Shown one piece after another: positions 17,762 to 43,226 of a stretch of DNA of 64,000 bases. A program made the position numbers and the translations under genes. Under the pieces are notes generated by a model. It had not been told where the DNA came from and did no database searches. It was given only the letters and a program-made list of their open reading frames with translations. The first letter of the stretch is position 1. The number at the start of each line of letters is the position of its first letter. The stretch spans positions 28,935 through 92,934 of the forward strand of contig ML210211.1 of the NCBI GenBank assembly GCA_004369085.1, read 5' to 3'. Source of the stretch: Coprinopsis marcescibilis (lineage: Eukaryota > Basidiomycota > Agaricomycetes > Agaricales > Psathyrellaceae).

Positions 17762-19136
17762 ATGGCTTCCCAACATAGGCTGCTATTGCCAATGCAGCGT
17801 GCACAACCCCGGGGCGATCAAGCTCCAATGCCCTCCTTCAACAAACTTCCACTACCTCCAATACAGAGTCCATCCGGCGGGGTCAAAACCGAGCCTTGGA
17901 AGGCAGGTTATCGGTCATCATATCCACGGTCCAATCGAATACCTTGGAATCCACAGAATCCCAATAGTGATTATCTCAGCGCTTCCCGCCTTCGTTTGAG
18001 GCTAATAATTGTACTCAGGGACACCTTGGATAACAATCGAACACCTGTCAGACTCGGAGGACGATAGCGATAGCACAGATGATAGCGACGAGACGGACAA
18101 CAGCGATTACGAAGATCACATCTCGGTATATACTATACCACCACCAGAGTCATATACCGCGAAGCAGGCACTCAAACCAACCTTCTCCCCGACGATCATT
18201 AGGACCCCCGAGATTTACGAGCGGCAAGCGGCATCAACTGTAAAGTACGGCCAAGGTCACGGACTGCAGCAGCTACCTTTTTCCAGCCGCCACTACTCGT
18301 CCAGACAATCTGGCAGTCAGTCGTTCCATGCACTGCCTCAAACGTCCTCCGCCCACGCACGCACTGAATTCCCAGCCGAGCCAATGGCCCTACTAAGCCC
18401 TTTGATGCTTTCGTCACCACGGCCAATGGGCAAGACTCTGACTAGTCACACCAGACAGTACCAAAGGCCGTTTTACCGACAAGCACCCTTGACTGCAGTT
18501 GTTCGCGACAAACCCAGGGATGGTACAGACACCCGAGTGACACCGACACATGCTTCCACATCCACATCGTTCGCTCACCCACCGAATGCTGAACCAGGAC
18601 CCTCGAGGCAAGGCGATGATTTGCCACAGCAAGCTCAGGCCAGCACGGGCCAATATAGGAGTGCTTCCACCGCTCGCACGAGCCAGTACAACATCCCATC
18701 GACACCAACGCCGCCGAAGCCGACGCAACACAGTCATTCGTTTACTCAGCCATCTATGTATCGTCCGCCCTCTAGCCAGCGACCCAGTTTCCCATCGTCT
18801 TTCACTCAAGAGGGTCCCACCCAACCCTCAGATACTCGGGCAGCTATCGTGCACCATTCGACACCCTCACCGAATCAGACGCCTCGAATTGGTCAACCCA
18901 GACCAATCCCATTTGCTCAAAGCCAGTTCAGCCAGATTACGGGATCGCATCCCCTGCAAAGACCCTTCCAAGAGTCGATTTCTCAACGCATTCGGCTACA
19001 GAGACCGCCTTCTGAAGCGTCCTTTAACAGCCCGTCTACCACTGGACAGCTATCGCCCGCCTTTAGCTACCAAAGCAGCAGCGCTTATTCGACAGGGACG
19101 ATACCGACGCTAACCTTGTCGCCTGGCTTCATTTAA
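17762..19136 (+). CDS. T1: disordered Ser/Pro/Gln protein with shared tail
   Basis: The first gene of the tail family. Exon 1 from the ATG at 17762 joins exon 2 by an intron of about 57 bases (donor near 17962, acceptor ttgtactcag ending near 18019), giving roughly 440 residues. There is an acidic patch (LSDSEDDSDSTDDSDETD) near residue 75. A long low-complexity region follows, rich in Ser, Pro, Thr and Gln, with no recognisable fold. The tail at 18984-19133 reads QRIRLQRPPSEASF, then FSYQSSSAYS, then IPTLTLSP. There are no membrane segments or signal peptide. It is most likely intrinsically disordered, with unknown function. Sharing the tail with the kinase T2 just downstream is the only functional hint. 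Confidence 0.75.
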
Positions 19137-19682
19137 AATAGGAAATCTGGAAAGGAGGTTTTAAAAGCCAATCGTTAGGCTGTGTTGCGAGAGGCTAGCG
19201 CTCCACGTAAATACCCCGTTTCCCTCGCCGACGTGAATAATCAGTACATACCATTGACCAATACGCAAAACCACAGCACTTGGTGTGGTGAAAAGCAACA
19301 GCGTATTTCGGGCGTCAAATCATGGTGCGTGTTGTCATCATGTGGTCGACATGAGGCTATCCTGGATGTTTAAGTCAGACGTTCCCTGTCACAGCTTCAC
19401 TTCCTATTCACATCCCACCTCGATCTTTAACCATCCAATATCTCAATTAGAATAATCGATGAAGGACGCGACCTTGAGGATCAACGTGACGACAGCGTCA
19501 CCGTCCTCATGGTGAACACGCTCTCTGACTAACCTGTTGTCCTAACCTTCCGTCTTCCCAATCCACGCACTTGTGGCCGACCACTGTGCAGGCTCTTTCT
19601 CTACGAGTGTCAGTAGCCCACTTTCCTCTGGAAGGCGCCATTCGCACGTCGCGCTACCCCCACACTCCCTCTTCTACTCATC
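19137..19682. other. T1-T2 spacer, T2 promoter
   Basis: A pyrimidine-rich stretch (ctttctctacgag, cacactccctcttctactc) runs up to the T2 ATG, typical of fungal core promoters. No gene was seen. Confidence 0.5.
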
Positions 19683-21187
19683 ATGTCCAATAAATTTGCC
19701 ACATCAGCATCAAACGGGGATCACCCAGTTCCTGGAACCCTCATCGACAACGACACTCTTGAACTTGTCGAGATAGTCGACACAAGCGGCTACGGCATTG
19801 TCTATCGCGCTGTCGAAACATTCATCAAACCCAATAAAAAGCCCAAAACATTCACTGTAAAGGTTTTCAGCTGCACCGACGGCAAACGCAGCAATCACAT
19901 CCGCGAGGCTTCCCTCCAATACCATGTCTCAGGCCACCCAGGCATCATTTCACTCTACCAGGTTCTCGAGGAAGACAACCACATGTACTTTGTCATGTAC
20001 TATGCAAATAGCAAGGACTTGTTCCACCAGATAGATCAGCGGTGCTATCTCGGGAACGACCATGTCATCAAGAGCGTTTTCAAACAGCTGCTCGACGCCG
20101 TCGACCACCTTCATTGCATGGGCGTGTACCATCGGGACCTGAGGCCGGAGAACATCTTGTGCTTGGAAAACGGGTTGCGGGTAGCAATCAGCGAATTTGG
20201 CAGCGCCACAACAGACAGACGCAGTGTCGAGTTCCGGACCAGGAGCATTTACCACAGTCCAGGTGAGTCTTGACTATGGACTCGTGTGCAGACGGAAAAT
20301 AGCAAAAGAGCTGATTCACAATTGTTAAATTTGTTTCAGAATGTCAAGCTGGACGCTACGCTTCAGACGCGTACTCGCCAATGGCGACTGACGTGTGGTC
20401 GTTGGGCATAATCCTGCTCAACATGGTGACAGGACGCAATCCATGGGAGTCGGCGACAGCCGATGACCCAATCTTCCAAGCCTACGGCCGTTCCCCCTTC
20501 AACTTTTTCCCATCCGTCCTCCCCATTTCGACAGCCTTCAATAAGCTCATGATCCAAGTGCTGGATCCGAATTGGAAAACAAGATTGTCGCTACACCATT
20601 TCAGACAGAAGATCGAAAGCATCAGTACGTTCTACTCGACGGATGTCGTGTTTGTTGGTAGTCTGGCGATGAGGGCTTGGGAGACTAAGGCACATCCAGA
20701 GGGCAAGCCAGCATCGCATGTAGCTGGCAGGCGCCAGACAGTTCCTCCGCCTCCTGGAAGAGCCAAGCCATACATAATAAAGACCACTGGCGATGAGGCA
20801 AGCGCTCCCGTGCCGCCTGCTCAAGATAAGTCTCTACCACCCATGCCCGAGGGACAGGGCTCTCCATTCCGTCACCCCGCACCACCAGCACCACATCCGA
20901 AATCTCCTCTCGTGCAACAATACTCACGTGCCGAGCCCCGTTTGCAACAACCATCGTCTGCAGTATCCCAGCCGGTCCGACATCAAGCCCAACCTCACCT
21001 TCACTTGAACTTGCCGGTCGTACCAGGTGCCACAAATCCAATGTCGCTTCGCTCCCAAATTCAGAGACCACCCTCCGAAGCATCGATCACTAGCGCCTCT
21101 ATTGATCGACCCACTTCAATTATGAGCTATCAAAGCAGTGTGACCTCCTCCTCAGGAACCATGCCGACCCTGGATCTCTCGCCGTAA
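19683..21187 (+). CDS. T2: Ran1-like kinase with shared tail, EFG in place of DFG
   Basis: The body resembles fungal Ran1/Ksp1-type Ser/Thr kinases. It has a degenerate Gly loop TSGYGIVYRAV (residues 34-44), the ATP-binding Lys in FTVKVF (K60) and an alphaC Glu near 75. The catalytic loop YHRDLRPEN (149-157) keeps the Asp. The metal-binding DFG is changed to EFG (171-173), which usually cripples activity. DVWSLGIILLNMVTGRNPW marks the C-lobe. One intron (about 20265-20338) joins in phase at SPE/C. After the kinase come about 130 Pro/Ser-rich residues and the tail at 21053-21184: QIQRPPSEAS, then MSYQSS, then MPTLDLSP at the very end. It is a paralogue of T11. Activity is uncertain; it may be a weak kinase or a pseudokinase. 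Confidence 0.85.
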
Positions 21188-21414: not shown

Positions 21415-22908
21415 CTAGAGGCGAGTTGCACGAATGGGAAGGGCCTTTGGAGTCTTTTCGAGATACGACGTCCACAGCATCGGGTTGGGATAAACACTTC
21501 CATCCCCCTACATCTTGGCATCAGCTCCGTTATCCACCAGCCTGTACGATATAGTACTCACAATCATAGAATTTGGGAAGCCGACGTCCAAAGCCTTTGC
21601 ATTATCCAGGAACTCCATCTGTTCGGGAGTCAACGCAATCTCCAGAGCCTCGATATTGGCTTCCATTTGCTCAGGCTTGCGTCCTCCGACGATAGGGAAG
21701 ACAAACTGGGCCTTGTGCATCACGTATGCGATGGCCACTAGGTGAGTAAGTGTCGTCAGAGACCGTACGGTAGTGAGAGAGTTCAGAACGAATTCGACAT
21801 ACCAGCAGTGAGGCTCTTGGCGCCAACCTCGGCTTGAACTTTCTCCAGCGCGTCGCAGACAGCCTTTTCTTCTGGACTGCGTTCCCAGCCATTGTTCCAT
21901 TGCATGTTACGTCCGTTTTCACCGGTTTGACGACGACGCTCTTCTTCAGCGTTGGAACGGAGCCTGCCACCGGCGAGGACGCCAAAGGGTGCGAAGGCCA
22001 TTCCTGAACGTGACAAAGATAATCAGGACAGAAACGGAGCCATAACAAGAGTAATGCGAACCTTCGTCGCGAACGAAAGGCAGGATGTCACGCTCCGCAG
22101 ACCGTTCCATGATGTTATACATGGTCTGGTATATGACAAAGGGAGTCTTCCCGGTGCGACGGGCGTACTCATTGGCTCGAGCAACGATCCAAGCGGGCGT
22201 ATCTGAGATGCCCTGGAATGTTGGGTCAGCATGTGATGCACTTGCGCTTTGAGATCAGACTCACCAAGTAGAGAACGATACCGCGCTGAATGTAGGTGTG
22301 CAGCGCGTCCACGACCTCTTCGACGCTGGTGTCCCAGTCCCACCAATGAACGTAAAGGATGTCAATATAGGTGGTGCGTAATGCCTTTAAGCTTTTCTCG
22401 ACAGTGTTGCGGAGGTTCTTGGCGCTGTTGCCAGTGTAGGCGGCGCGAGCAACCGAGTGAGCTGGTACATGGGTGCAGGAGCTGTACTGAGTTGGGGATA
22501 CTGGATAAGTACAGCACTGGAACAGAAGCACAACAATAATACCTTGGTCGCAATGATGAGTTGGTCCCGAATACCGCGAGCTTCCGCCCATTCACCAATG
22601 ACTTGCTCGGAGGTGTTGTCTTGACTGTGGAGGAAAGGTTAGTACATCAGCACATGTAAGGCGACTGACTTCAACGTACTAGTTACCGGCGGTATCAATA
22701 AAGTTCCGCCCTGTTCCCAAAAGGCGTCAAGAAGCTTGATGCTCATGTCCTTGTCCATATAACCCATACCAGCAGACCATGGGGTTTGTTCGCCAATGGT
22801 CATACCCCCGAGCTGAAAACCGGATGCATGAACACTAGCACGCTTAGCAAGTTGGCGCAAGACGCCGAGCTTGGAGACAGGTGCATCGGGTTGGACAAAA
22901 AGGGCCAT
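21415..22908 (-). pseudogene. Aryl-alcohol dehydrogenase (aldo-keto reductase), frameshifted
   Basis: A NADPH-dependent reductase of the AKR/AAD type, which interconverts aromatic aldehydes and alcohols. It starts MALFVQPDAP at 22908 and contains GYMDKDMSIKLLDAFWEQGG. The next segment FIDTAGNYQ, holding the catalytic Asp and Tyr region, is one base out of frame (near 22708), with no intron there to repair it. Downstream exons are normal: IDILYVHWWDWDTSVEEV, GMAFAPFGVLAGGRLRS, VFPIVGGRKPEQMEAN and a last exon ending at 21415. Introns are near 22652-22618, 22545-22485, 22263-22210, 22060-22000, 21805-21735 and 21565-21510. One missing base in an otherwise intact gene suggests either a very young pseudogene or an assembly error. 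It interrupts the T array on the opposite strand. Confidence 0.75.
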
Positions 22909-24146: not shown

Positions 24147-26300
24147 ATGGATTCCTCAATCGAGCCCAACGAAGCATGGAAATCCAAGCTGAAGGGAAAG
24201 ATTGAAGAGATGATTGAGGCCATGGTCGAGGAAGCTGATCGTACCTTCAAACAAGAGCGACGATTGGGACACCAAACCGAGCATTATACAGAGCTAGCCG
24301 CTATCCGCGCCACGGCAGATGACATTTTCAACGAGTACCTTGCCCAGGAACGTCAGCGACGCATCGAGGTCGCGTGCTTCCTGGCAGAGGTTCAAAGGAT
24401 GCCGGAGCTGCTGGGCCGACTCTACGCAATCGAGGGTCACGTTCGGCGAGGGAGGATATCTGGGTCGATTATTGGCGGGGATACAGCCATATACAGCACC
24501 GAACTTCACGATGGACCTCACCCTCCTCCCGCCTCCACAGAACAGTTCGAGCCCGACAACGAGTGGAAAGGCGAGCTTCAGCGGCAAATCCTATACCAGA
24601 GCTTACTATGCCAGGCGATACCTGCCGCACGCCGCACCCTCATTGAACGTTTTCAAACCTTTCGGCGACGCGGTGACTCGGACATTGCACTACTGTCCAA
24701 ATATTATGGCAACGTGTCAAGCCTGTACGAGAACGGAGAGGGACGCTATAAAGCAGCGCTTGATCGCGAGCGGAGGCGACGACGCTGGGCTGCGAGTCTC
24801 GGCGACAATGGAGAAGGAACAGCCTGTGGAGCTCAAGGTGCAGGGGTTTCAACAAAAGGAGGAGAAGGCCGTTGGGGAAGCACACAAGGCTTGCAATCCT
24901 CCTCCATTAGCGCACCATCACCAAACACGTCGCTTGCGCCAAACGATGACGTAGAAACTACCACCAGATCCGTACGCTTTCAGAAGCGTGCCAAACGGCC
25001 TAGTAAACGACATCCGATACAAGTTCCATCAGATCCGGGCGACAACGACCACGTTCTCAGAAACCTCCTCGAGTTCACGAAAACTATCCAGAAGGAGCTT
25101 GAGCGACAGCAGTCAGTGGAGAACGAGTGGGAAGGGTACGACCAGATTAAGGAGAACAGGCGCACACACACCCTTGGCTATCGGGTCCCGAGAAGGGACC
25201 CAGCGGGTTCTACTCCAGTTGGGGTGGAACATTGCAAGGATGGAGAATACATCGATAAAGACCAGGCCAACGAGACAGCCAGGTCCGACCTACCAGCCAA
25301 TTCGACGAATATTCGTTGGAAGCCAACACGAATACAGGCTTTGGCCGAAGTTGCGAAACTCGAGACGGAGCTTGAGATGGAGAAGGTGGGAAGACAGAGG
25401 CTGCAACGCGAGGGAAAGGCACGGGAGCATGAGCTGAAACGAGTACGCACAGCACAAGGGAAATCCAAGCGGGAGCAGGCTAAGGAAAAACATTCGATCA
25501 GCGAAAGGACGCAGCAAGAGAGCATTGAACGCCAGAATGCTGAGCTTCAGGAGAGCTTGGAGCGGGAGAGGGTCGAAAGAGATAGGTTGGAGAAGGAGAG
25601 AGTTACGGCTGAGCGAGAGGCCGAAAGAAACAGACTGGAACTGAGGAAGGTAGAAGCGGAAAGAATCGAAAGGTTGGAGAGAGAGAGGGAGAGGAAAAGG
25701 CTTGATGACGAGATGCTGGAACCGGAGAAGCTTGAAAGCAAGAGATTAGAGGCGGAACATCTTAGGCAGAAGCAGTGCGAGGATGAGAAGCGTGAACAGA
25801 AGAGACAAGAAGAGGAGCGGTACATAAAGGAGCGAATAGAACAGGAGACACTCGAACGCATCAGAATACGCCGTGAGAAGATGCTCAAAGAGCGGCTTGA
25901 AAAAGAGACAGCAGAGAAGGCAAGGAAGTCCGGGGGAACTGCCAGCAGGCACGGTCAACAAGCACCAACGGAAACACCGCAGCAAGAGGATGGCTGGTAC
26001 AGCCCTGTAGCACCGTGTGACACCCCTCGCCAATTTGATTCTCTAGCTGAAAGGCACTCTGGGCTTTCTCAGCAGGTCTGGTATGAGGGCAACATTGCTG
26101 GCGTGCAAGCAATTTCCAGCGAGTTGCCCCTCCGTTTGCGGATTAAGAGACCTCAGTCGGATGTTTGGTCTGAGCGACGTGCGACAGTATTTAGCTTCCA
26201 GAGCACTTCCAGCGGTGAACAGGCCCCCACTCCCAGTATGAATCTTTCACCATTGGGAGGATGCTTCGACCTACCACAGCATGTATTCGTTAGTGCGTAA
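24147..26300 (+). CDS. T3: long coiled-coil protein with shared tail
   Basis: A single exon of 717 residues. Residues 1-210 are mostly helical, with no recognised domain. A basic patch RSVRFQKRAKR lies near residue 275. It matches both an NLS-like cluster and the RVxF docking consensus of protein phosphatase 1. Residues from about 385 to 590 form a very long Glu/Arg/Lys heptad region (ERERVERDRLEKERV and similar), so a dimeric coiled coil is expected. The tail at 26137-26269 is the most diverged of the family: LRLRIKRPQSDVW, FSFQSTSSGEQ, PSMNLSP, followed by 14 extra residues. It is the largest member with no enzyme domain. Confidence 0.8.
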   Translation: MDSSIEPNEAWKSKLKGKIEEMIEAMVEEADRTFKQERRLGHQTEHYTELAAIRATADDIFNEYLAQERQRRIEVACFLAEVQRMPELLGRLYAIEGHVRRGRISGSIIGGDTAIYSTELHDGPHPPPASTEQFEPDNEWKGELQRQILYQSLLCQAIPAARRTLIERFQTFRRRGDSDIALLSKYYGNVSSLYENGEGRYKAALDRERRRRRWAASLGDNGEGTACGAQGAGVSTKGGEGRWGSTQGLQSSSISAPSPNTSLAPNDDVETTTRSVRFQKRAKRPSKRHPIQVPSDPGDNDHVLRNLLEFTKTIQKELERQQSVENEWEGYDQIKENRRTHTLGYRVPRRDPAGSTPVGVEHCKDGEYIDKDQANETARSDLPANSTNIRWKPTRIQALAEVAKLETELEMEKVGRQRLQREGKAREHELKRVRTAQGKSKREQAKEKHSISERTQQESIERQNAELQESLERERVERDRLEKERVTAEREAERNRLELRKVEAERIERLERERERKRLDDEMLEPEKLESKRLEAEHLRQKQCEDEKREQKRQEEERYIKERIEQETLERIRIRREKMLKERLEKETAEKARKSGGTASRHGQQAPTETPQQEDGWYSPVAPCDTPRQFDSLAERHSGLSQQVWYEGNIAGVQAISSELPLRLRIKRPQSDVWSERRATVFSFQSTSSGEQAPTPSMNLSPLGGCFDLPQHVFVSA

Positions 26301-26810: not shown

Positions 26811-27701
26811 ATGTCTCGATCCAAGCCTGAAGTTATCATAGTACCGCAGCAGCGTTATCATGATTACTACCCAGATCAGGTGGTCATCGCTCCGGCTGCA
26901 CCTTTCCCCCAGCCTACGCCTAGCCCATCATATGTCAGTTCCTCAGGGTACCCCGGGTATTTCACTCCAACCGTTGGAGAGCCGGTTATACCTCACATGG
27001 CTTGGACACCAGAGGACCGTAGCTCCACAAATACTGCCCTTCCTACGTATGACGTTGAAGCAAGGTCGCGTAACTCTCGTACAAGCGAATCAAGACGCGT
27101 AAACCAAAGGTTCGAGGCACCACCTCCAACTGTTGATACGGGGAAAGGGGCAGGGGTAGGGAAAGAGCTACGCCAGGATTGGATTTTAGCGGAAGAAAGG
27201 CTAAAGCGAGATCTGGAACGAGAAAGAAGAAAGCGAAAAGGGTTGGAGAGGGAGTTGCAGCAGGAACAAAAGCGAAGGGAGGAGGTTGAAGCCCAGCTGG
27301 TAGAGACGCGATCGCAATTGCAGCAAGAGCGCAAAAACTCTCAGCCAGAGAAATCCAGCCGACTCTACGAGACGGGTGTATTTGAATCACCGCATCGCCT
27401 TAGCGTCACGAACGGTGCTCGGACAAAGACAGCCAAGAGCCACGCTGAAACACCTAATTCAGCATCATCAGAGGAGATAGAGCCTAAGCAAGCCAGCAAG
27501 CCTTCTCTGCGACAGCGCATTGGACTACAAAGGCCTCCATCAAGTATATCCAAGTCCTCAACGAGCAGCGAAGCGACAGTTCGTCCAGGTGCACCCTCGA
27601 TCCTCAGCACCGCATATACAGCAACGAGCACGAAATCATCCATCCCAACCTTAAACCTCGCACCTTTGCTGTCCAAATTGAGCCTTACATCTCGGAATTA
27701 A
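26811..27701 (+). CDS. T4: coiled-coil protein with shared tail
   Basis: A single exon of about 296 residues. The N-terminus is Pro/Tyr/Ser-rich and disordered (VVIAPAAPFPQPTPSPSY). A basic Arg/Ser segment and the block APPPTVDTGKGAG follow. A short Glu/Arg coiled coil (LKRDLERERRKRKGLERE) covers about residues 130-190. Then comes a conserved block, YETGVFESPHRLSVTNGART, shared with T5. The tail at 27515-27701 reads LRQRIGLQRPPSSIS, then SIPTLNLAPLLSKLSLTSRN, so it has LAP in place of LSP and an extra hydrophobic end found only in T4 and T5. The upstream gene of a tandem pair with T5. Confidence 0.8.
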   Translation: MSRSKPEVIIVPQQRYHDYYPDQVVIAPAAPFPQPTPSPSYVSSSGYPGYFTPTVGEPVIPHMAWTPEDRSSTNTALPTYDVEARSRNSRTSESRRVNQRFEAPPPTVDTGKGAGVGKELRQDWILAEERLKRDLERERRKRKGLERELQQEQKRREEVEAQLVETRSQLQQERKNSQPEKSSRLYETGVFESPHRLSVTNGARTKTAKSHAETPNSASSEEIEPKQASKPSLRQRIGLQRPPSSISKSSTSSEATVRPGAPSILSTAYTATSTKSSIPTLNLAPLLSKLSLTSRN

Positions 27702-28956: not shown

Positions 28957-29784
28957 ATGTACCCAACCCAGCTTCTTGTCCCAGTATCCCAGTGGCCGCC
29001 TTATTACCCAGTTCAGCCCGCTGCACCTTTCTCTCCGTACTCAGCAAACTTCACCCCACCCTTCGGAGGCGAGCCTACCACTCTGACTGGGATGGGAAAC
29101 CACAACCCCCAGATGGGTGTCCTTGTCTTTCTTCCATCGCTCCCTGGACGAACGAGCTCGTGTGGATCTCGTAGTACTAGCAAGTCAAGACGCACAAACC
29201 GAAGGACTAAAGCACCACCTCCGACTGTTTATACAGGGTCAGGGGGAGCACTGCGTCAGGGGTCGAATCGGACCGTAGTCGACGACGAAAGGATGAAGCA
29301 GCATCTGGAACGAGAAAGAAGAAAACGGAAAAGGTTGGAGATGGAGTTGCAACAGGAACGACAGCGAAGGAAGGGAGCCGAGGCCCAATTGGCCCGGGTA
29401 GAGATGCAATCGCAATTACAGCAGGAACCTCAAAACCCGAAGCCAAAGGAACCCAGCCAATTCTACGAGATGGGTGTATTTCAAGCAACGTGCCGCCTCA
29501 GCCTCATGAACGGTGCTCGGACGAAGACAGTTGAAAACCGCCCTAAAACTCCTCATTCAGCGTTGTTGGAGGGGAGAGAGGCCAAGCCGGCCAGCAAGCC
29601 TGCCCTGCGGCAGCGTATTCGACTTGAAAGGCCTCCATCAAGCGTATCCATTCACTCATGTGCGCGGCGATCCACACTCATCACCACATACACAATGGCA
29701 ACAACTTGTCGCACAAAATCATACATCCCGACCTTGAATCTCGCACCATTATTATCCAGATTGAGCCTCATTTCTCGGAATTAA
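28957..29784 (+). CDS. T5: coiled-coil protein with shared tail, duplicate of T4
   Basis: A single exon of 275 residues, colinear with T4. It has a Pro-rich N-terminus (WPPYYPVQPAAPFSPYSA), the shared block KAPPPTVYTGSGG, the coiled coil MKQHLERERRKRKRLEME and the shared block FYEMGVFQATCRLSLMNGART. The tail at 29617-29784 reads LRQRIRLERPPSSVS, then YIPTLNLAPLLSRLSLISRN. Identity to T4 is highest in the coiled coil and tail and low in the N-terminus. Unknown function, probably disordered plus coiled coil. Confidence 0.8.
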   Translation: MYPTQLLVPVSQWPPYYPVQPAAPFSPYSANFTPPFGGEPTTLTGMGNHNPQMGVLVFLPSLPGRTSSCGSRSTSKSRRTNRRTKAPPPTVYTGSGGALRQGSNRTVVDDERMKQHLERERRKRKRLEMELQQERQRRKGAEAQLARVEMQSQLQQEPQNPKPKEPSQFYEMGVFQATCRLSLMNGARTKTVENRPKTPHSALLEGREAKPASKPALRQRIRLERPPSSVSIHSCARRSTLITTYTMATTCRTKSYIPTLNLAPLLSRLSLISRN

Positions 29785-30211: not shown

Positions 30212-32095
30212 ATGGCTCCTCCTCCCCCACCCCCCTTGATGCCCTTCCCCTTGACAAAGAATGTTGCCAAACCAGACCAGCAACAGACATCGTCCGAGTA
30301 TTACCGGACTTCGAAGGATCGCAGCGAAGCGGTCCAAGTACAGTACGAAGCAGAACTCGCAAAGTGGAGCCAACGATGGATGCTTGGTTTGACGGCCCCA
30401 GAGGCGCAGCCAACCGGCCGCGTCAGCGTCTCACAGCAGGACGAGAGCAAGAGAGCTCAAGTATCAGGGTCATCGGTTCGATCAGGACCCCCATATGTCT
30501 ACCACACAACCTTCCATTCGACTCCCAAGACTGGTGGCAGCAAACAATCCCATGCCCAGCCTAAGGACCATCGTTTTCAACGTAGCTCCAAACATCGTTC
30601 AGCAAAGTCCTTGTATTACTATCACTCATCGGCGGAGGACGACAGTAGCGACACGAAGCACCACACGCTCATCAAACCCCCAAACCACAACCCAACCTCT
30701 ACATTTGCAGAACGAATACGGCGTGAAGAGAGGGGCAATCAGAGTCGATCTGCAACGTCACCGCGAGCAACACAAGGAAGGCAACGAGGGATCCGGACAG
30801 CCACGGAATACGCAAAGCACACCGCCTATTCTGGCAGAATCTGAGGGCGAACAACGGGCTCGAGGGAATCGGTCGCTCCCCCGTCGAAGGCAATCACAAC
30901 ATCCCACCTCCACACGTCAGTTCATGCTGCCCCAGCTCACGAGCGTCCCCCTTGATTTGGAAAACGACGGGCTTGATGATACTCAGCGCCTAGAACCTGG
31001 GGAACAAGAAACTCTAAGACCCCCGTCTTCATCTTGGTCTTGCTCGTCTCGTAATGGCGACCTCAAGGATGGGCCAAACCAAAATGACAAAAGCTCTGGG
31101 ACAGGTGAGTATTAAGTCCATCGTCTAAGCAATCACGCTCTTTGCTAATCGATCCATCAGCTGCCACACATGATCCTGACGAGGAAGAATCAGCCCAAGG
31201 ACATGAAGATGAAGTTGAGAGGCTGAAGGCGAAGCTGAAGCATCAGGAGGAGCGGTATCGGGAAGAACAGCAGAAAGCAATGGAAAGCTTAGCAAAGGAG
31301 AAACGTCAGAGAATGAAGCTTGAGTGGGAGGTGCGGGATAGAGAGAAACTTGAAGAGGAAGGGCGAGAGAAAGACAGCTTGATTGCTAAACTGCAGGCGC
31401 AGAAGGCAGCGTTGGAACAGCAGATGAGGAATGAAGGGGAAAAGCAGGAGGAGGAGCGTGCGGACATGGAACGCCGATTTGAAGTAAAGTTGGTAGGAGA
31501 AAGCATTCGCATTGAGCGGGAGCAGCAGGAAAAGGGGCGTTTGGAGAGGGTGATGTATGTGGCTGGGATCAATAAGGGAAAAGAGAGCTGGGCAGCCCTT
31601 GATAAGGAAAGAAAGGAGGAACGAGAGACCTTAGAGCGGCAGAGGGAAGAGCTGAAGATGGAACTGGAGGGCGAACGGAAGGGTCGTCGGCAGCTTGAAC
31701 AGCAACGTCTAGCGCTGAAGCGGCTGGAAATTGAGTACAGGAAGGATCAGGGCAAGCTGGAACGCGAACGTCTCGAGCGAGAGAAGCTCGAAGTTGAACT
31801 TGCGAAGGAGATGGAGCAACGGGAGAGGCTAGAGCTAGAGCGGCAGCACCTGGAAGCGTTGGTTGCGCAACTCAGCTCTCAGGTGTCTGGCGGGCTTTCT
31901 ACTCAGCGAGCACCAAACGAGGGTGCACATCGTTCTCATATTCAGAGGCCTCCATCCGAATTTTCGCTTGCACAGACGAATGGAGGGCTGCGAACGTCAG
32001 TCTTCAGTTATCAGAGCAGCATCGCTACTTCGACGGGGCCCATACCCAGGCTGTCTCTGTCGCCGCATCTTTCTCCTGTGGGGCTCAATCAGTAA
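30212..32095 (+). CDS. T6: coiled-coil protein with shared tail, unresolved frame change
   Basis: It begins MAPPPPPPLMPF at 30212. Ser/His-rich disordered sequence runs in one frame until about 30700-30840, then coding-like sequence continues in the next frame (EPGEQETLRPPSSS). No intron of normal form clearly joins them. Either a weak-acceptor intron ending near 30742 or a single-base frameshift is needed. A clean intron at 31105-31160 then leads to a long Glu/Arg coiled coil (about 31200-31860). The tail at 31930-32092 reads RSHIQRPPSEFS, FSYQSSIATS, IPRLSLSPHLSPVGLNQ. If the frame change is a mutation, the C-terminal half would not be made from this start. Confidence 0.65.
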
Positions 32096-32109
32096 GAGAT
32101 TTGGAAGAT

Positions 32110-32732: not shown

Positions 32733-33695
32733 ATGTCGACAACAGGAGGCCACCAGCAACAGGCCCCTATGCAGAAGCCCAAAAAGAAAGTCCGGTTTTC
32801 GAGCACTGTTCAAGTCAACGACACAGGCACTGCCAGTATAAGTATGGTGCCTGAGCATCTAGTGCAAAGGCCAAAAGCACGGAGGTCGCGAAGGACGGTA
32901 GCTAATCCTTCGGACAACAATCCTGAAGCAATGGAGGTTGAGGCGATTCCACTGGTGCCGGACATGGACAAAGAGGACGGACAGTACGACCGAGCTCGTC
33001 TTATTTTGGAGTTCGAGGTGGAAAGACAGAAACATTTGCAAGAACGACGCGAAATGGAGGACAGACTCAATCAAGTGTTGCAGGAGAAGGATGCGCTGGA
33101 GAAGGAGCTGTTGACGCAGAAGAGAATGGTCATGTGGCTGGAAGGGGAGAGACAAAGGGCCAAGCAAGGACTGCTGGAACCAATTCTGGTGGAAAGGACT
33201 ATATCTGCGGATGACGCAGAAGCACCGCCCAATTCGGTTAACGGGTGGCCTGGCGCACAGTCGGTTCGTGAGGATGACGGGAAGCAAGGGCGAGCAAAGG
33301 CAGAGGAGGAGCAGGAAAGGACTCGCTGGTATAGGAGAGCGGCCATCTACTGGCAAGAGCATGAACGACTGGAGCGCGAGAGACACGAGTACTTTGTGGC
33401 TGAAAGAGAGAGGGAAAAACGCAAGCGAGAACCGGAGCTACCTCTTCCACAGGTGCCTGAAGAACTTTCCTCTGAGGATGACGACGAAATTCCCGACCAT
33501 CATCAAGATTTACCGACTCCTGATCCCAGGCCGCGGTTTAGGTTGCAAAGGCCCCCATCCGCAGCATCAACTTGTTATACGATTGGAGGACGGTCAACTT
33601 GCGAGTCGGTTTTCGGCTACGAAGGCAGTATAGCTGGATCTACATGTCCTACGCCTCGGATATCTCTGTCACCTTGGACTGATTTCGACGAGTAG
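32733..33695 (+). CDS. T7: coiled-coil protein with shared tail and VRF motif
   Basis: A single exon of 320 residues. The N-terminus has KPKKKVRFSSTVQV (residues 15-28), a basic patch whose K-V-R-F fits the PP1 RVxF docking consensus. Then follows a coiled coil (YDRARLILEFEVERQKHLQE to KRMVMWLEGERQRAK, residues 87-145), an Ala/Glu-rich linker, the block RRAAIYWQEHERLERERHEY shared with T8 and T10, and an acidic stretch SSEDDDEIPD. The tail at 33535-33692 reads RFRLQRPPSAAS, FGYEGSIAGS, TPRISLSP. It is the best-preserved member of the T7/T8/T10 subgroup. Confidence 0.85.
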   Translation: MSTTGGHQQQAPMQKPKKKVRFSSTVQVNDTGTASISMVPEHLVQRPKARRSRRTVANPSDNNPEAMEVEAIPLVPDMDKEDGQYDRARLILEFEVERQKHLQERREMEDRLNQVLQEKDALEKELLTQKRMVMWLEGERQRAKQGLLEPILVERTISADDAEAPPNSVNGWPGAQSVREDDGKQGRAKAEEEQERTRWYRRAAIYWQEHERLERERHEYFVAEREREKRKREPELPLPQVPEELSSEDDDEIPDHHQDLPTPDPRPRFRLQRPPSAASTCYTIGGRSTCESVFGYEGSIAGSTCPTPRISLSPWTDFDE

Positions 33696-34608: not shown

Positions 34609-35280
34609 ATGGATGGGAATCAATACGACCAAGCTCGTCTTATTTTGGAGTTTGAGGAGGAAAGGCAGAAACTTTTGCGAGAGCGATGTGAAATGGAGGA
34701 TAGACTCAATCAGGTGTTGCTGAAGAAAGATGGGCTGGAGAAGAAAGTGTTGACGCAGAAGCGGATGATCAGGTGGCTGGAGGGGGAGAGACAAAAGGCC
34801 AAGAAGGACTCGAAGCTGCTAGAAACAATTCTGGTAGCAAGAATTGTATCTGCGCTTGACGAGAAACGAGTGCGAGCAAGGATAGAGGAGGGTCACCAAA
34901 AGATTGGTGGAGAGAGGCCAGCGGCCATCTACTGGCAAGACTTTTATGAAAGGCTGGAGCGTGAGAGACAGGAGTACCTTGAAGCTCAAGAAGAGATGGC
35001 AGATAAACGCAATCGAGCACTGGCGGTACCTGTTCCACAATCGCCGGATTTAGAAGAATCTTCTTCCGAGGATGACGATGAAAGTCCCTATCATCAACAT
35101 GTACCGCCAACTGATGCCAGGCTTCGATTTCGATTGCAGAGGCCCACATCTGCAGCATCAAACGCTTCTTCAATTGGACGACAGTCTACTCCAGAGTTGC
35201 TTGACGATGAAAGTAGTATAGCGGGATCTGCATGTCCAACGCCTCGGATATCTCTATCACCTTGGATTGGTTTTAATTAG
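34609..35280 (+). CDS. T8: N-terminally shortened T7 paralogue with shared tail
   Basis: A single exon of 223 residues from the ATG at 34609. It begins MDGNQYDQARLILEFEEERQ, which aligns with T7 residue 80 onward. The T7 N-terminus, with the K-V-R-F patch, is missing because the ancestral start codon is mutated. The coiled coil and the block AIYWQDFYERLERERQEYL are kept. The tail at 35122-35277 reads RFRLQRPTSAAS, DDESSIAGS, TPRISLSPWIGFN. The body is intact, so a shorter protein could be made. Whether 34609 is really used as a start is inference. Confidence 0.7.
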   Translation: MDGNQYDQARLILEFEEERQKLLRERCEMEDRLNQVLLKKDGLEKKVLTQKRMIRWLEGERQKAKKDSKLLETILVARIVSALDEKRVRARIEEGHQKIGGERPAAIYWQDFYERLERERQEYLEAQEEMADKRNRALAVPVPQSPDLEESSSEDDDESPYHQHVPPTDARLRFRLQRPTSAASNASSIGRQSTPELLDDESSIAGSACPTPRISLSPWIGFN

Positions 35281-35313: not shown

Positions 35314-35790
35314 CTATTGTTCGCGTGCTTCACGTAGATCCTAGAAATGTAGTGCGTGTTTACTGAGACCGAAGACTTGGATCTGGGGGGTCACTGAACC
35401 GACCCAGAGTCAAGATGAAGAGTGCACGATCAACGCCGGCAAAACGACGAAGATCTCCAAACTTTATTGAAGCGGGGAATATGATTGTTCTCAAATATCA
35501 CCCATGTGGAAAATTTGTGCAAGCAGCAAGTGGCTGCTGAGAACGCCGACGCTGAATACCCTCGTGTTTCGACAGAAGACGAGAGATTATGTCCAATTTG
35601 ACGATTCCAGTGTTAACTGACATGAGGCACAGATAGCGCCTTTGCTGATCCGAGTAACAGCAACTCTGATGAGAGCAGTGCGCATCCCTGATCCCTGTTC
35701 TATACGCTGTAGCCGTTCCCTCAACTCTCTATCCTCACTATTACCCCACAAACTAGCCACCTCCTCCAAAATTGCCCCAAGGAATCAGGA
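35314..35790 (+). repeat. Direct repeat copy A: orphan promoter of a lost T gene
   Basis: About 470 bp matching the T10 upstream region (37977-38450), including gttcgcgtgcttca, the third promoter-element copy (35450-35476), tgtccaatttgacgattcca and ttagccacctcc-like leader sequence. Where T10 has its ATG (gaaatgtcccc) this copy reads aaattgcccc. It is therefore the promoter and leader of a T10-like gene that was deleted or lost its start. Confidence 0.75.
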
Positions 35791-35996: not shown

Positions 35997-37627
35997 ATGA
36001 CGGAATACGACTACTCGCCAGAAGCTTGGGACCGCTATATTGCTGCCCAGGACAGAATTTCAAGGTTGGTGCAGATGTATGGATCAAGCACCAGTCAGCC
36101 AACTACTAGTCGTGAAAGCCAAGCAAGGCCGCTGCGTCACTCAGGGGTGGATCAGTCTATTGGTCGTACAACTACTTCAGCTCCGTCGCCTGCACAATCT
36201 CATCGCAGCATCCCTGCCCCTCGACACCATGCGCGCACATCTTCCACAGAGTCCCTGGGTCGTCCACCGTTATCCAAGGCACATGCAATACCCACCGCCA
36301 ATCAATACATTGGTCGTAGGGCAAGCACTTCAGCTACTCTCCCTCCAAGATCCCCGCCCAGCCTGCCTTACTCTCAACGCCATCCACGCTCGGCTTCCAC
36401 AGAATCCTTGCCAGGTCGCCTACAATTGTCCGAGACCTATGCCCCAGCCACTGCCAGAAGCTACACAATGTCCAACGAGGATCTTCCACGGATCTCTGCT
36501 CGATTCATGACCACAACATCCAGACCACCAGTATCCCCAGCTATCATTAACCGTGGTAGAGGCACAGACTCGGACTCGCACGATGAATATCCAAGCCAAG
36601 CGGCCCACAGACGCAGCACTCGCAACCCAGTTGTGCCAAGCTACGACCGTCCGCAATTACCGTACCGCTCAGGCAGCAATCAATCCATTGGTCGTTCAAG
36701 TACCTCAGCTCCTTTCTCTTCAAGATATCCTCCCAGCCTGCCTTCCCTTCCTCGCCATGGGCGCTCAGCTTCCACGGAGTCCTTGGGCCGCCTACAATCG
36801 TCCAAGAACTATCCTCCAGCCACTTGGAGCAAAACCATATCTAACGAGGATCTTCCATCGACCAATGCTCGATTCGTGTCCTCAAGACCCAGACCACCCG
36901 CATCCCCGGCCATCAGGAACCACAGTAAAGACACGGACTCGGACTCACAGGACGACTCTCCAAGTCAAGCCGCCAACGGACGCAAAGCTCGCAAGCCAGG
37001 TGACCATCCGCAATCGCTGTATCGTCTAGGTACCGACCGGTCTACGGATCGCGGTGCAGATGCTCCTTCAGCTCCTTTGTATTCACGGTCTCATTACCCA
37101 GTCTCTCAGCACCAGATACGCACAGCTTCCACACCATTTAATGAACTCGAAATCAAGCTCGAACAAGAACGAAAAAGGAGGGAGAAGCTTGAGACGGAGC
37201 TACTTAAGGAAAGAAAGCGACGGGAAAGGCTTGAAATGGAACTAAGGGAAGAAAAAAGGCGATTAGCAAAGGTTGAAGCGGAGTTGAAGCGAGAGAGGAT
37301 ACAGTGGGATCGGATTCGGTTGAAAGTAGAGGAGACACAGCGAAACCGCCGGGGTCAGGGGAGACAGATGTCGCAGAATCTGCAGGTCAAGGTTCCTCCG
37401 TTTACCCAGGTATAATCAGCAAACGCGACATTCTTGTCGCTGCGTCCTCGTCACAAAGGAAAGAACGTCTTCGGCTGGAACGACCTCCGTCGAGCCACGT
37501 TTCTTCTTCCTCAGGAAATAGCGAGGCCACTAGATGTTCATCCACAACTATCAGCACCGTTAAGAGCATAGAGTCGCAATTCGTCCCTACAATGGATCTG
37601 TCGCCTTTATGGTCAAATGAAACCTGA
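35997..37627 (+). CDS. T9: repetitive Ser-rich protein with coiled coil and shared tail
   Basis: Two exons with an intron at 37355-37410 (donor gtcagg, acceptor tttacccag), in phase, giving about 525 residues. Residues 40-330 contain at least three imperfect copies of a unit with QSIGR, TSAP, PPSLP, RSASTESLGR and, in two copies, SNEDLP and PASPAI. It is disordered and rich in potential phosphosites. A coiled coil (ELEIKLEQERKRREKLETEL) covers about residues 382-455. The tail at 37467-37624 reads RLRLERPPSSHVS, then VKSIESQFVPTMDLSP. The last part is nearly identical to the end of T11. The 3' flank also resembles that of T11, followed by an NLR relic. Confidence 0.8.
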
Positions 37628-37682
37628 ACGTCCTACTTTAAGTATATATAAAATTCGTCCAACTGTAGAATAACATTGTTCC

Positions 37683-37976: not shown

Positions 37977-38443
37977 TTCGCGTGCTTCAAGTTCACGTAA
38001 ATCCTAGGAACGGGGGGTAATGCGAGTTTACATAAACCAAAGAGTTTAATCTACGCGTCGATGAACAAATTCAAAGTCAAGATGAAGAGTGAAATATTAA
38101 CGGCAGAAAAACAACGGGGATCTCCGAACTTGATTGACGCGGGACATATTGTTCTCAAATCTCATCCGTGTGGTCTGGCAGTGTGAGCAGCGAGTGTCCT
38201 CTGAGAATGCCGACGTTGAATACCCTCGCTTGTCAACAGTACTCAACAATGAAGGCAGAAGATTGTGTCCAATTTGACGATTCCAGTGTTAACTAACACG
38301 AGGCACAGACAGTGCCTTGGCCGATCGTAACAGCAACTCTAGTGAGAGCTGCGCTCATCCCTCATCTCCGTTCCATACCGTTGTAGCTTCTCCTCCTCAC
38401 TCTATATCCGCACATTACCCATAAATTAGCCACCTCCCTCGAA
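37977..38443 (+). repeat. Direct repeat copy B: T10 promoter
   Basis: The partner of 35314-35790. It contains the fourth promoter-element copy (38119-38141, tctccgaacttgattgacgc) and leads directly to the T10 ATG. Confidence 0.7.
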
Positions 38444-39090
38444 ATGTCCCCAGTATTACCAACGTTGACAACAGGAAGGGACTCGCGCCAGGCCTTTACG
38501 TACCGGAATCCCCCAAAGCAAGCCCAATTCTGGAGGTTTGATCGAGTTGACCAGAAGGGCAGCGTAGACCAAGTACATCTGAGGCCGAAACAACCCACCT
38601 TGCTGAGAGTCAACCACCCAACCGACCCTACCTACTATTATGAAGCCGAAAGCCCGAGCTCACATCGACACAAGAAAACAAAAGTAGCTGGAGAGTTGAG
38701 GGTAGAGACTCCTATTGCGTCGCCTGTTTATGTGGAACGCTATGACAGAATTCGCCTTGTGGCCGAGTTCGATGAGGAAAGGCGGAGATTTGTACGAGAG
38801 CGACAGGAAATGGAGGGCAAGATCAATCAGCTGTTGCTGGAGAAAAAGGCGCTGCAGAAGAAGCTGTTGACGCAGAAGCGGATGATTAGGTGGCTGGAGG
38901 GAGAAAGGCAAAGGGCCAAGAAGCAGCTGTTGGAAACAATTCTGGTGGATAGGACTGTATCTTGCCCTGTTTGTTCCTTGCTCGCAGTTCGTTGTGAGCG
39001 AGCTAACAAGTGGCATGTGGACCAAACACACTTGTGTGGTGAGTTGGGGGTGGAGAGGCTCCGGCAGGAGACTCGAGCCAATCTCCAGGT

Positions 39091-39130
39091 NNNNNNNNNN
39101 NNNNNNNNNNNNNNNNNNNNNNNNNNNNNN
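39091..39130. other. Assembly gap (40 N)
   Basis: A run of N directly beside the minisatellite. The repeat is the likely cause of the gap. Confidence 0.99.
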
Positions 39131-39265
39131 GCCTTTTGATAGGCATAAATAGACAGCCTGTCCATAGGCATAAAAAAGCACCTCTCCATAGGTGTAGCCT
39201 TTCAATAGGCATAAGTGAAAGAGGCCTGTCCATAGGCAAAAGGACAATGTCCTATTGGCAAGGCA
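39131..39265. repeat. Minisatellite, ataggcataa units
   Basis: Irregular tandem units built on cctgtccataggcataa (also cctctccatagg, cctttcaataggcataa and cctgtccataggcaaaa), about 20-28 bp apart, roughly six copies. It continues an array probably collapsed in the adjacent gap. Confidence 0.75.
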
Positions 39266-40281
39266 CATCACTCGTACAGTCGCACGACGTGCAAGGTGAG
39301 GAAGCGTAGGCCCCATGGTCGAGTGGATGGATACAACAAGTTTGAGGCATAACGTGGGATACTAAGCATGTATTGGGGAGAATTCGTCTTTGTTTCGAGG
39401 TATGGCACAGTAAGTACACTGGTTGGGGGTTATGGTTAACGTAGTGTGTCATGCGAAAATGTAGGTCATCGTCGTTGGTGGGATTGATAGTGTTGAGTCT
39501 GGTGACGTGTTGCTGAAGGACGCTGAGGTCGTGTGTCTTGAAGGGTTTGAACGGTCGTTGTGGTTTGAGATATGCGTGTGAAGGGTTTGCCGATGCTGGC
39601 TCAGGGCTGCATGTCCCGGAGATGTTGAGATCCTGTTTCCTTACTCGTCGTCACTGCCTGTGGCCGGAGGTGTCTCTGCGAGCCGTTGCAGTGAAATGAG
39701 GCTGTTTGCCGTTGATGAGGGGTCGAGGAGTAGCCACAAGGTGGATGGGTGGTTCTTGTCAAGCAAGCACGGGGTCACGTGCGCGTCACTGGGCAAGACT
39801 TTGTATTGCTCGTTCGCTCCGCTGCCTCGCAATCCACCAATCTCTGGACGATGGGAAGCAGGTTCAAGCAAGGATAGAGGAGAGACGCCAAGAGACTCGA
39901 CGGAACAGGAGAGCGGGCATCTATTGGCAAGAGCACGAATTCAAAAGGCTGGAGGGAGATAAACACGAGTACTCGGAGGTTGAAAGAGAGAAGGAGGAAC
40001 GCAAGCAAGGATCTACACCGCCTATCCCACAACAGCCTCAGGAAGTTCCTTTCTCCAAGGATATCGGTGAACCACCCGATCTTGAAGAATCTCCAACGTC
40101 CAACGACAAGTTGCGACTCCGGCTGCAGAGGCCCATCTCTGCGGTATCGTCTTCCCAGACCATTGGAGGACTGTCTGCTTCTGGGTCCCTTTTTAGCTAT
40201 GAAAGCAGCGTAGCTGCATCTATATATCCTATGCCTCGGATGTCTGTCTCACCACACATTCCGTGGGTGGGTTTCAACTGA

Positions 40282-41291
40282 TACGGCGGTAGTTGTATGC
40301 AATAGGTTCTCTTCTCTTTGTCGACTGTGGCCTCAAATTGGAGCTATGATCTCAATACCGCTGACCTACTGATTCTGTAGTGTATTTCATATCTATTCAA
40401 TTCGATGTAACTGTGCCGCTGGGAATTAAACCCGGCACCCGAACCATCTAGCCGTGTTTCGTAAAGAGAACTTGCCCTTTTGTCAGCCTTGTACAAGGTG
40501 AGCAAGTCTCTCCGGCGCGTCCGTGAGTCGAACCCCACTTCCAGAGGCACAGCAAGCGCGGAAGATCGTACGACTGGATTAGTCTGGGTACAAAGTTACC
40601 TTCGGCGCCTATCTCACGCTACGCTTACAGCATTTTTTCTTTCGCTCTCCCGAAGGCCGGTATACCCTTGGGCGGCAGCAAGATGCGCGTGATTGGTCCA
40701 GTGCGAGTGAACCTCTGACCTTTTACCTTCATCACCTTGCCCTGGCCGAGTTCTGTGAACGACTCAGGCTTTTGACGGGCTTCATTGGCTTGCAGCGACT
40801 GATTCGCGAGACAGTGAGGACAATACCTAACTAAACAAACGTACTACCCAGCTTTACTCCACCATGTACTAATATGTGAAGCAGCACTCCACATAGCGTA
40901 GAATCAAGTATATCGGGTGCTTGTCATAACCCTAAGCGCCTGTGGCAGTACCTGCATAGCTTGTAGGTCACCTATCGCTCAGGTGCAAATCATTCTACTG
41001 GCCGAAGTCACCAAGCTGATTGAACGTTCATCGAGCAGCACAGCCTTCCAGTTTGCTGTGGATCACGAGTCAGCTGCTAGTTTCCTTGATTCCCGATTCT
41101 GCCTCATGTTCTACACGCATCTTCCTGGCCGCGGTCACGTGCCAGCTTAACGTGGTAAGGATTCTATAGTATATATCCCCTCCAGCTCCCTCGCAGCTCC
41201 TGCTTACCTTGTCAGGCTCCAACTCTCTCTTCCTTTTGCGCTCCGAACACATCCTGCCCAGTGCACTCCTCCTCATCCAACAACTTGTAAG
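40282..41291. other. T10-T11 spacer
   Basis: No gene. At 40405-40550 there is tRNA-like and hairpin sequence (gtgccgctgggaattaaac, with ends tgtgccg and aggcaca) that does not fold as a tRNA; it may be a SINE remnant. A TATA-like tatagtatatat lies near 41168-41179, about 115 bp before the T11 ATG. Confidence 0.4.
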
Positions 41292-43226
41292 ATGCCTCAA
41301 GCATCTTCCCCCGTCATCCACCCACCAATCGGGACTCTCATTGACGGAGACTCGCTTGAACTCGTTGAAGTTCTCAGCGCTGGCCAAGGTAGCGTTGTCT
41401 ACCGTGCAGTCGACACCCGCCGCACCCCACGTCTGAGATCATACGCCGTAAAGTGCCTGATCACCTCTGGCCATCGATCAGCGCGCCAACGACAGGCCCA
41501 CATCCGCGAAATTACCCTACACCAACTCGCTTCGGCCCACCCAGGCGTTGTAACCCTCTACCGAGTAATTGAGCAGTATAGCCACACCTATATAATTACG
41601 GATTACGCCGACAGCCACGATTTGTTCGCTCAAATTGTTCACGACTGCCGCTACCTTGGAAGGGACGATCTTACTAAGGTCATTTTCCTCCAATTACTTG
41701 ACGCAGTGGAGTACTGCCACTCGCTCTGTATATATCATCAGAATCTAACGCTCCAAAGCATCGTTTGCCACGACGATGGCCTCCGTGTCTCCATCACAGA
41801 CTTCAGTCATGCTACCACCGACAAGCTCAGTAATAAATTCTGCACAGATAGCGACTACCACATCAGCCCAGGTACATTGCAACCTTGCGTCCCTTGACCC
41901 TCTCACAGTGCTGACTGGAACTTTCTAGAGTGGCAGGGCGGAGCCTTTGCCCCAGGCGGCAGATACTCTCCGATGTTCAATGACATCTGGTCCCTCGGCA
42001 TCATCTTGCTCAATATCACAACCGGTCGCAGCCCGTGGAATTCTGCGACTCTAGACGATCCAAACTTTCAAGCCTACCTCCGCGATCCCTACGGATTCCT
42101 TCCCACCGTTGTCCCCATCTCCTCCGAGTTCAATGAAGTTCTCGTGCGAATGCTCGAGGTTGACTGGCGTGAACGCATGAAGCTGCGCGACATCCGTCAT
42201 TCCATTGAGGAACTCACCACATTCTACTCCGACGGCGTGGTATTTGAGGGTAGCGTGGCTCGATGCCCTTGGGAAGTTGATATGGGCATCAGCAACACCA
42301 AAGCCTCAAATTCTGCTCGCGGTTTCTCCCGCTCGACCACCGAAGAGTTGGCGCATGGTGAGCCCGGGCCTAAATGTTCTTCGTGTGGTGCAACCTGGGC
42401 CTACAACTTGTCCTCTGTCCCTCTCATATCCAGCAGCAGCAACAATGACTTTGGTATGAATACCTTTGGCGGCTCAGACAGACTCTATGAAGCGTCAAAG
42501 GTCACCTTCGCCGTGCAACAAGGGATGAAACAGTCCAACTCCCGCTCGATCCGTGATACCGATACACCAAGGCTCCCCATCCGCCCAACAAACGGGAGAT
42601 TTAGCTCCCTCTCCGACAAGGATTCGGACACTAACCCGGACATGATGCACACTGCAATAGAGTACGATCCCTACTCTTTGCTTTTCTTCCTTTCGCCTCC
42701 GAACCCCTCTACCAAACAGTTATCAGGGTCATCACAACGTCAGCCATATTTCTCTATCTACCGCTATAGCAGGAATCTGACTGACTCTCCAACAGGACCT
42801 CCTCACGTCTTCCCCGGCCGACAAAAGCTCTCGGACCTCAAACCACAGGTCCCTTCCCCTTCCCCTGCCACTACACCTTCGGGCGCCAACCCATTCTCAA
42901 GGGATCGGATTTGGTTGAAACCAAGGCAGAAGCAGGGAGGCCAATGGTCAGAGACTATGGGCCCTGCTGAACCTGAACACCATTTCTCAACCTACCGAAG
43001 GCCGCGCACACCTAGCAAGCGTGACCCTATTGTTGCCGCCTCCCCATCCCTGGGGAGAGGACCTCTTATAGTGGATCATCACATTGGACAACACCTTCGA
43101 CTGCAGAGGCCACTCTCAAGCTCCACAAGCTCTTCAAGAAGGAGCGATGTATCCATTACCACCATTGCCAGCACCGTTACGAGCATAGAGTCGCAATTTG
43201 TTCCTACGATGGATCTGTCGCCTTGA
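41292..43226 (+). CDS. T11: Ran1-like pseudokinase with shared tail
   Basis: Two exons (intron about 41870-41929, in phase at SP/E). It is a paralogue of T2 with the same kinase frame: ELVEVLSAGQGSVVYRAV, ATP-site Lys in YAVKCL (K54), LLDAVEYCHSLCIYH and DIWSLGIILLNITTGRSPW. The catalytic loop HRDLKPEN is replaced by HQNLTLQS (149-156), so both the catalytic Asp and the metal-binding Asn are gone. DFG reads DFS (170-172). Phosphotransfer is not expected, although ATP binding may remain. A disordered 270-residue linker follows. The tail at 43087-43223 reads LRLQRPLSSSTSSS, then VTSIESQFVPTMDLSP at the C-terminus. It ends 106 bp from the stop of the convergent NLR. Confidence 0.87.

What the first reader, a model, noticed from the sequence alone, without database searches (positions are those of the whole stretch)
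17762..43226. Eleven consecutive genes with different bodies share one C-terminal tail module
T1-T11 all lie on the plus strand and all end in a 45-60 residue tail. The tail is R-x-R-I/L-x-L-Q/E-R-P-P-S-x-x-S, a Ser-rich middle often with F-S-Y-x-S-S, then P-T-L/M-x-L-S-P at or near the C-terminus. The bodies differ: kinases (T2, T11), long coiled coils (T3, T6), short coiled coils (T4, T5, T7, T8, T10) and disordered repeats (T1, T9). Seen directly: the tail recurs with no common body. Inference: the tail is the functional common part (a docking, localisation or phosphorylation module; R-P-P-S and L-S-P look like kinase sites) and bodies were swapped onto it. I know no named domain with this pattern.
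Basis: partly seen in the sequence, partly recalled or inferred. Interest (0 to 1): 0.92.

Follow-up and report, generated by a model that had tools for sequence, protein, structure and literature searches.

The report
One tail grafted onto many genes
In one mushroom genome, at least seventeen genes end in the same short tail, and several are rearranged copies of other genes whose original ends were replaced by it, two of them kinases that appear to have lost their activity.

Summary
All eleven C-terminal tails are real: a profile of the other ten recovers each at E <= 3.5e-9, while the best non-tail window ORF scores E 0.064. Seventeen tails were found in the assembly, 13 of them within 65 kb of one contig. 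Proteins identical to T1 and P0003 are named Coprinopsis marcescibilis.

The bodies are not all different: the eleven fall into about eight classes; T4/T5 and T7/T8/T10 are paralogs. T2 is 82% DNA-identical to a tail-less kinase gene, then, after 74 nt, 77% identical to the tail DNA of a gene with an unrelated body. T11, P0003 and C220 show the same pattern: a copied 5' part whose original 3' end is replaced by the tail.

Both tail-bearing kinases have degenerate catalytic motifs and evolve faster than their parents. Tails show dN/dS 0.20-0.46, so they are selected as protein. The tail is predicted unstructured, with two linear motifs.

Best reading: a family of chimeric genes sharing a docking/phosphorylation tail, probably non-catalytic decoys or competitors of their parents. 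Function, expression and presence in other species are unproven.

The parts
17792..19136 (+). T1: disordered body, paralog of tail-less P0004 (contig C239); tail 18981-19136. NCBI FA15DRAFT_756964 (430 aa)
19683..21187 (+). T2: degenerate kinase related to the C176 kinase gene; tail 21044-21187; chimeric junction 20973-21046
21508..22588 (-). aldo/keto reductase ORFs between T2 and T3 (no tail; not part of the family)
24147..26300 (+). T3: long coiled coil with N-terminal module related to tail-less C103; tail 26130-26300
26811..27701 (+). T4: short coiled coil, paralog of T5; tail 27510-27701 (LAP instead of LSP); start codon 26769 or 26811
28957..29784 (+). T5: short coiled coil, paralog of T4; tail 29608-29784 (LAP)
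31109..32095 (+). T6: coiled-coil ORF with tail 31925-32095 (upstream exon candidates from 30212, not resolved)
32733..33695 (+). T7: coiled coil, paralog of T8/T10; tail 33528-33695
34609..35280 (+). T8: coiled coil, paralog of T7; tail 35119-35280
35997..37627 (+). T9: repeats related to a segment next to a RhoGEF-domain ORF (C2) plus coil; tail 37460-37627 in another frame, join not established
38444..40281 (+). T10: T7/T8 paralog, interrupted by a 40-N gap (39091-39130); tail 40108-40281; 5' flank shared with T9
41292..43226 (+). T11: degenerate kinase related to the C43 kinase gene; tail 43092-43226; 43169-43247 is 87% identical to T9's 3' end
43333..47275 (-). NACHT + TPR (NLR-type) ORFs convergent with T11; neighbour, no tail

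Best explanation
A family of chimeric genes in Coprinopsis marcescibilis. SHOWN by sequence: 5' parts of several unrelated genes (two kinases, the P0004-type gene, the C103-type coiled-coil gene) were copied as DNA, introns included for T2 and T11, and joined upstream of one 45-60 residue C-terminal tail; four junctions are visible, and the tail is under purifying selection. INFERRED: the tail is an unstructured docking and phosphorylation module (a basic-hydrophobic R-x-x-L/I-x-R-P-x-S site resembling the LxRxxSxxxL consensus of AMPK/MARK kinases, and a P-x-L-x-L-S-P end) that brings every member to the same partner or site. INFERRED, less certain: because tail-bearing copies have lost catalytic motifs or the parent's conserved C-terminus, they act as non-catalytic competitors or decoys of their parents, addressed to that shared partner.
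For: 17 tail loci in the assembly. T2: 82% DNA identity to C176 over 1.4 kb, then 77% over 147 nt to the P0003 tail. T11: 80 and 70% to C43, then 87% over 79 nt to T9. P0003 is 83% identical to its same-strand neighbour P0004 over residues 186-310 but lacks the C-terminus that P0004 shares with metagenomic P0005 (E 1.4e-13). C220: C103-related up to residue 115 of its 201-aa ORF, then C66a-like. Tail dN/dS 0.20-0.46 in the 11 of 13 pairs with finite dS; pairs are not independent. Kinase motifs: T11 HRDLKPEN to HQNLTLQS and DFG to DFS; T2 DFG to EFG; copy-specific versus parent-specific changes 18:5 and 34:9. Tail model unstructured, mean pLDDT 65.5.
Against: No transcript, protein or interaction data. 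Decoy action is inferred from lost motifs only. Kinase bodies still show pairwise dN/dS 0.21-0.36, part of which may be the parents' constraint. T9 may be a broken gene, T10 crosses a gap, C66b has a stop in the frame as read. The +4 hydrophobic residue of the AMPK-type site is present in only 9 of 17 tails and the SP serine in 14 of 17 (read). That C43 and C176 end where their ORFs end is assumed.
Confidence: 0.5

Rival explanations
1. Ancestral tail with loss: an old tailed gene family diversified, and the tail-less relatives (C43, C176, P0004, C103) lost it.
For: T4/T5 and T7/T8/T10 descend with their tails from tailed ancestors.
Against: P0004's own C-terminus is shared with metagenomic P0005, so it is probably the older end. 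C43 and C176 keep catalytic motifs and have different C-termini. Closest tail DNA pairs join unrelated bodies: T2 with P0003, T9 with T11.
Confidence: 0.08
2. Neutral debris: partial gene duplicates land in a recombination-prone cluster and read into existing 3' ends; the proteins have no function.
For: T9 frame problem, T10 gap and interruption, a stop inside the C66b frame as read, segment shuffling and a frame change in C220, 5' flanks shared between T9 and T10.
Against: Tail dN/dS 0.20-0.46, long open frames, 17 of 17 conserved R-P-x-S.
Confidence: 0.2
3. Immune adaptor set: the tail docks to an NLR or shared scaffold and the bodies are baits, working like plant ZAR1 with its pseudokinase partners.
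For: NACHT-TPR ORFs beside T11 and C401, chance probability 0.02 to 0.10; two degenerate kinases in the set; variable bodies with a constant tail.
Against: At least 154 NACHT-type matches in the genome, 150 of 352 candidates scored, so adjacency may be chance. No tail match coincides with a listed NACHT match (against 37).
Confidence: 0.12
4. Transposon-driven capture (Helitron-like): the tail belongs to an element that picks up host gene fragments.
For: DNA-level copies with introns; Helitrons with captured genes are described in Pleurotus (PMC4289320, passages seen).
Against: No inverted repeats of 40 nt or more in 17000-44000; no mobile-element family above its cut-off among the window ORFs scanned (one sub-cut-off Resolvase hit of 13.3 bits on an aldo/keto reductase ORF). 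Not all ORFs were scanned and Helitron ends were not modelled.
Confidence: 0.1

Closest known systems
C-terminal amyloid signalling motifs of fungal NLR partners (HRAM, PP, sigma; passages of PMC9815663 seen)
   Same: one short C-terminal module on unrelated bodies; an NLR gene next to T11
   Different: no copy of the motif found at a listed NACHT match; 45-60 residues, rich in Ser, Pro, Leu, Thr and Arg; no pore-forming domain among the bodies scanned; amyloid formation untested
Plant ZRK pseudokinase cluster with ZAR1 (search listing and abstract starts; details recalled)
   Same: clustered fast-evolving degenerate kinases that may act as adaptors
   Different: here kinases are 2 of 17 members, joined by a tail; no NLR partner shown
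Helitron or Pack-MULE captured gene chimeras (PMC4289320 passages; others listing only)
   Same: fragments of host genes joined into new genes
   Different: no element ends or replication protein found in what was scanned; the tail is under protein-level selection
AMPK/MARK substrate consensus LxRxxSxxxL (start of abstract of PMC6890249 in the listing)
   Same: [L/I]-x-R-P-x-S in 17 of 17 tails
   Different: hydrophobic +4 residue in 9 of 17 only; no phosphorylation data

Membership tests
fungal NLR amyloid signalling motif | motif at the C-terminus of effector proteins | tested here: met
   16 of 17 tails end 0-15 residues after the final motif; C66b lacks that motif but the same block ends its ORF
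fungal NLR amyloid signalling motif | matching motif at the N-terminus of an NLR | tested here: not met
fungal NLR amyloid signalling motif | amyloid or prion formation | not testable with these tools
   no assay
pseudokinase decoy or adaptor (ZRK-like) | degenerate catalytic motifs | tested here: met
   T11 HQN, DFS; T2 EFG and DLRPEN
pseudokinase decoy or adaptor (ZRK-like) | binds an NLR | not testable with these tools
   adjacency only
Helitron-captured genes | Rep/helicase or element termini | tested here: inconclusive
   none in the ORFs scanned, no inverted repeats of 40 nt or more; Helitron ends not modelled
AMPK/MARK-type phosphosite | hydrophobic -5, Arg -3, Ser 0 | tested here: met
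   17 of 17
AMPK/MARK-type phosphosite | hydrophobic +4 | tested here: inconclusive
   9 of 17, counted by eye on the alignment

The most novel reading that the evidence does not exclude
The tail is an address label that turns duplicated gene parts into decoys: a lineage has repeatedly fused crippled copies of regulators (kinases, a coiled-coil giant, perhaps a RhoGEF) to one docking tail, so that all decoys assemble at one hub. No such modular decoy array in fungi appeared in the paper searches made here.
Probability: 0.25. Interest if true: 0.88.

Novelty: new variant of a known kind. Interest (0 to 1): 0.68.

Why it matters
It is a case, readable in one genome, where a short protein tail has been attached repeatedly to unrelated genes, with several tail-less relatives still present. 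That lets one ask how new chimeric genes arise, whether a disordered linear-motif tail alone can recruit new genes to a pathway, and whether the catalytically degenerate copies antagonise their parents.

Tried and rejected
Tail as generic low-complexity sequence: rejected, leave-one-out E-values against reversed and shuffled controls. Tail in other species: searches with T1 whole, the T1 tail and the P0003 core returned only C. marcescibilis proteins plus one metagenomic relative of the core (P0005) that lacks the tail. The search is insensitive (the T1-tail search returned only T1 itself, not T2 or C104), so absence is weak evidence. NLR enrichment: inconclusive, P 0.02-0.10. Terminal repeats or mobile-element ends: none found. 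Structure of the tail: unstructured. Papers: searches listed no description of this tail; seen were passages of PMC10182949, PMC9815663 and PMC4289320, otherwise listings and abstract starts only. Weak tail-like rows dropped from the count: C3:282585 (E 0.04, 1 stop), C35:210766 (E 0.88, 2 stops), C127:24822 (E 6.3). The T4-T5 body dN/dS is void (wrong frame).
Full report
Source. The window is part of contig C66 of a 36.3 Mb assembly. T1 is identical to a Coprinopsis marcescibilis protein, FA15DRAFT_756964, and two further proteins encoded on contig C239, P0003 and P0004, are also named C. marcescibilis.

Observation. Six-frame reading shows eleven + strand ORFs ending in the tail (alignment A1). 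Each tail is recovered by a profile of the other ten at E 3.5e-9 or better. With the full profile the best non-tail ORF of 1305 window ORFs reaches 0.064, reversed ORFs 0.018, and 20 shuffled sets 0.038. The three single tails given to Pfam (T1, T6, T7) matched nothing.

Extent. Searches of the whole assembly with five real tails and one typed consensus give 17 tail loci, a lower bound because only the best candidates are scored: eleven in the window; two on the (-) strand of the same contig at about 7.6 and 9.7 kb (C66a, C66b); and one each on C104, C239, C220 and C401. Three weaker rows were dropped (E 0.04, 0.88, 6.3). Thirteen of 17 lie within 65 kb. The tails share R-[ILFST]-x-[LI]-x-R-P-x-S in 17 of 17 (first R replaced by K or H in two), then 30 to 40 residues later P-x-[LMIP]-x-[LVF]-[SA]-P in 16 of 17; a real Ser-Pro is present in 14 of 17, since T4 and T5 have Ala-Pro and C66b has neither. 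A model from the eleven-tail alignment has only three residues of helix and mean pLDDT 65.5.

Bodies. All-against-all comparison of bodies without tails links T4 with T5; T7, T8 and T10; T1 with P0003; T3, C66b and C220 with the tail-less 1838-aa gene C103 (its ORF end); T2 with T11 as kinases. T9 matches a segment of an ORF on contig C2 (E 7e-17); the ORF overlapping it downstream has a RhoGEF domain, and that the two ORFs form one gene is inferred. C66a lies downstream of a RING-like exon that scores below the Pfam cut-off, and the exon join is not established.

Chimeric junctions. (1) T2: window 19580-20972 is 82% identical to the C176 kinase gene in one alignment that spans the intron; after 74 nt, 21047-21186 is 77% identical to the tail of P0003, a gene with an unrelated body. 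The C176 ORF ends without a tail. (2) T11: 80 and 70% identical to the C43 kinase gene, whose ORF also ends without a tail, then 87% over 79 nt to the T9 tail and 3' end. (3) P0003 and P0004 lie in tandem on the same strand of contig C239 and share 83% identity over residues 186-310, but P0004 ends in a block that metagenomic P0005 shares (GFWN.RGD.LT ... RPELPESLPR; E 1.4e-13 for that part), while P0003 ends in the tail. (4) C220: its 201-residue 3' ORF is C103-related up to residue 115 and C66a-like afterwards. In T2, T11, T1, P0003 and C220 the tail shares one open frame with body sequence, so these fusions do not rest on a gene model.

Selection and catalysis. Pairwise dN/dS of tails is 0.20 to 0.46 in the 11 of 13 pairs with finite dS; two pairs were saturated, and pairs are not independent. 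The T4-T5 body value in that call is void, because the T4 body was read in the wrong frame. Kinase pairs give 0.21 to 0.36. T11 has HQNLTLQS for HRDLKPEN and DFS for DFG; T2 has EFG for DFG and R for K in DLKPEN; the C43 and C176 motifs are intact. Copy-specific against parent-specific amino-acid changes are 18:5 for T2 and 34:9 for T11. Among solved structures the C43 kinase is closest to SNF-related, CaMK1, AMPK and MARK kinases.

Mechanism. The kinase copies carry introns, so they arose through DNA, not mRNA. Shared 5' flanks of T9 and T10 with different bodies, the T7/T8/T10 tandem copies and the T9-T11 tail similarity point to recombination within the cluster (inference). No inverted repeats of 40 nt or more and no mobile-element family above cut-off were found in what was scanned. 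The tail serine context [L/I]-x-R-P-x-S resembles the LxRxxSxxxL consensus of AMPK-family kinases (abstract start of PMC6890249), with the +4 hydrophobic residue in 9 of 17 (counted by eye). The most economical functional reading is a disordered docking and phosphorylation tail that gives many bodies one partner or address, with the copies acting as non-catalytic competitors. The address and the competition are inferred.

Results against. There are no expression data. T9's tail is out of frame with its body and none of 7 intron candidates had a branch site. T10 crosses a gap. C66b has a stop in the frame as read. NACHT-TPR ORFs sit beside T11 and C401; with 154 to 352 NACHT matches the chance of 2 or more of 6 loci lying within 5 kb of one is 0.02 to 0.10, so the NLR link is open either way, and the flanks of the other loci were only partly scanned. 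The protein database search is too insensitive to prove restriction to this species.

Verdict. The tail is real, selected and has been exchanged between genes; the chimeras are well supported (about 0.9 by my judgement); the decoy reading is open.

Noticed in passing
window 43333-47275 (-): NACHT (NPHP3_N) and TPR ORFs, an NLR-type gene convergent with T11; a similar NACHT-TPR pair lies 0.75 kb from the C401 tail ORF.
   Followed up: partly
window 35390-35705 and 38057-38378: T9 and T10 share 76-86% identical 5' flank blocks although their bodies are unrelated.
   Followed up: partly
L020 (contig C239): P0004, the tail-less neighbour of P0003, has a C-terminal block (GFWN.RGD ... RPELPESLPR) also found in a metagenomic protein but in no Pfam family above cut-off.
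   Followed up: partly
L021 (contig C220): The C220 tail gene shuffles the segment order of C103 (coil before the middle segment) and changes frame between its two ORFs.
   Followed up: partly
window 36169-37002: The T9 body contains internal direct repeats of 89-175 nt, related to the C2 segment.
   Followed up: partly
contig C104 about 45936-46022: A 29-residue match (72%) to T7's N-terminus with one stop, about 12 kb from the C104 tail gene: perhaps a relic copy.
   Followed up: no
window 7437-9524 and 49154-49939: Ordinary neighbours: Suc_Fer-like, DUF1349 (-) and CAP59 mannosyltransferase ORFs.
   Followed up: no
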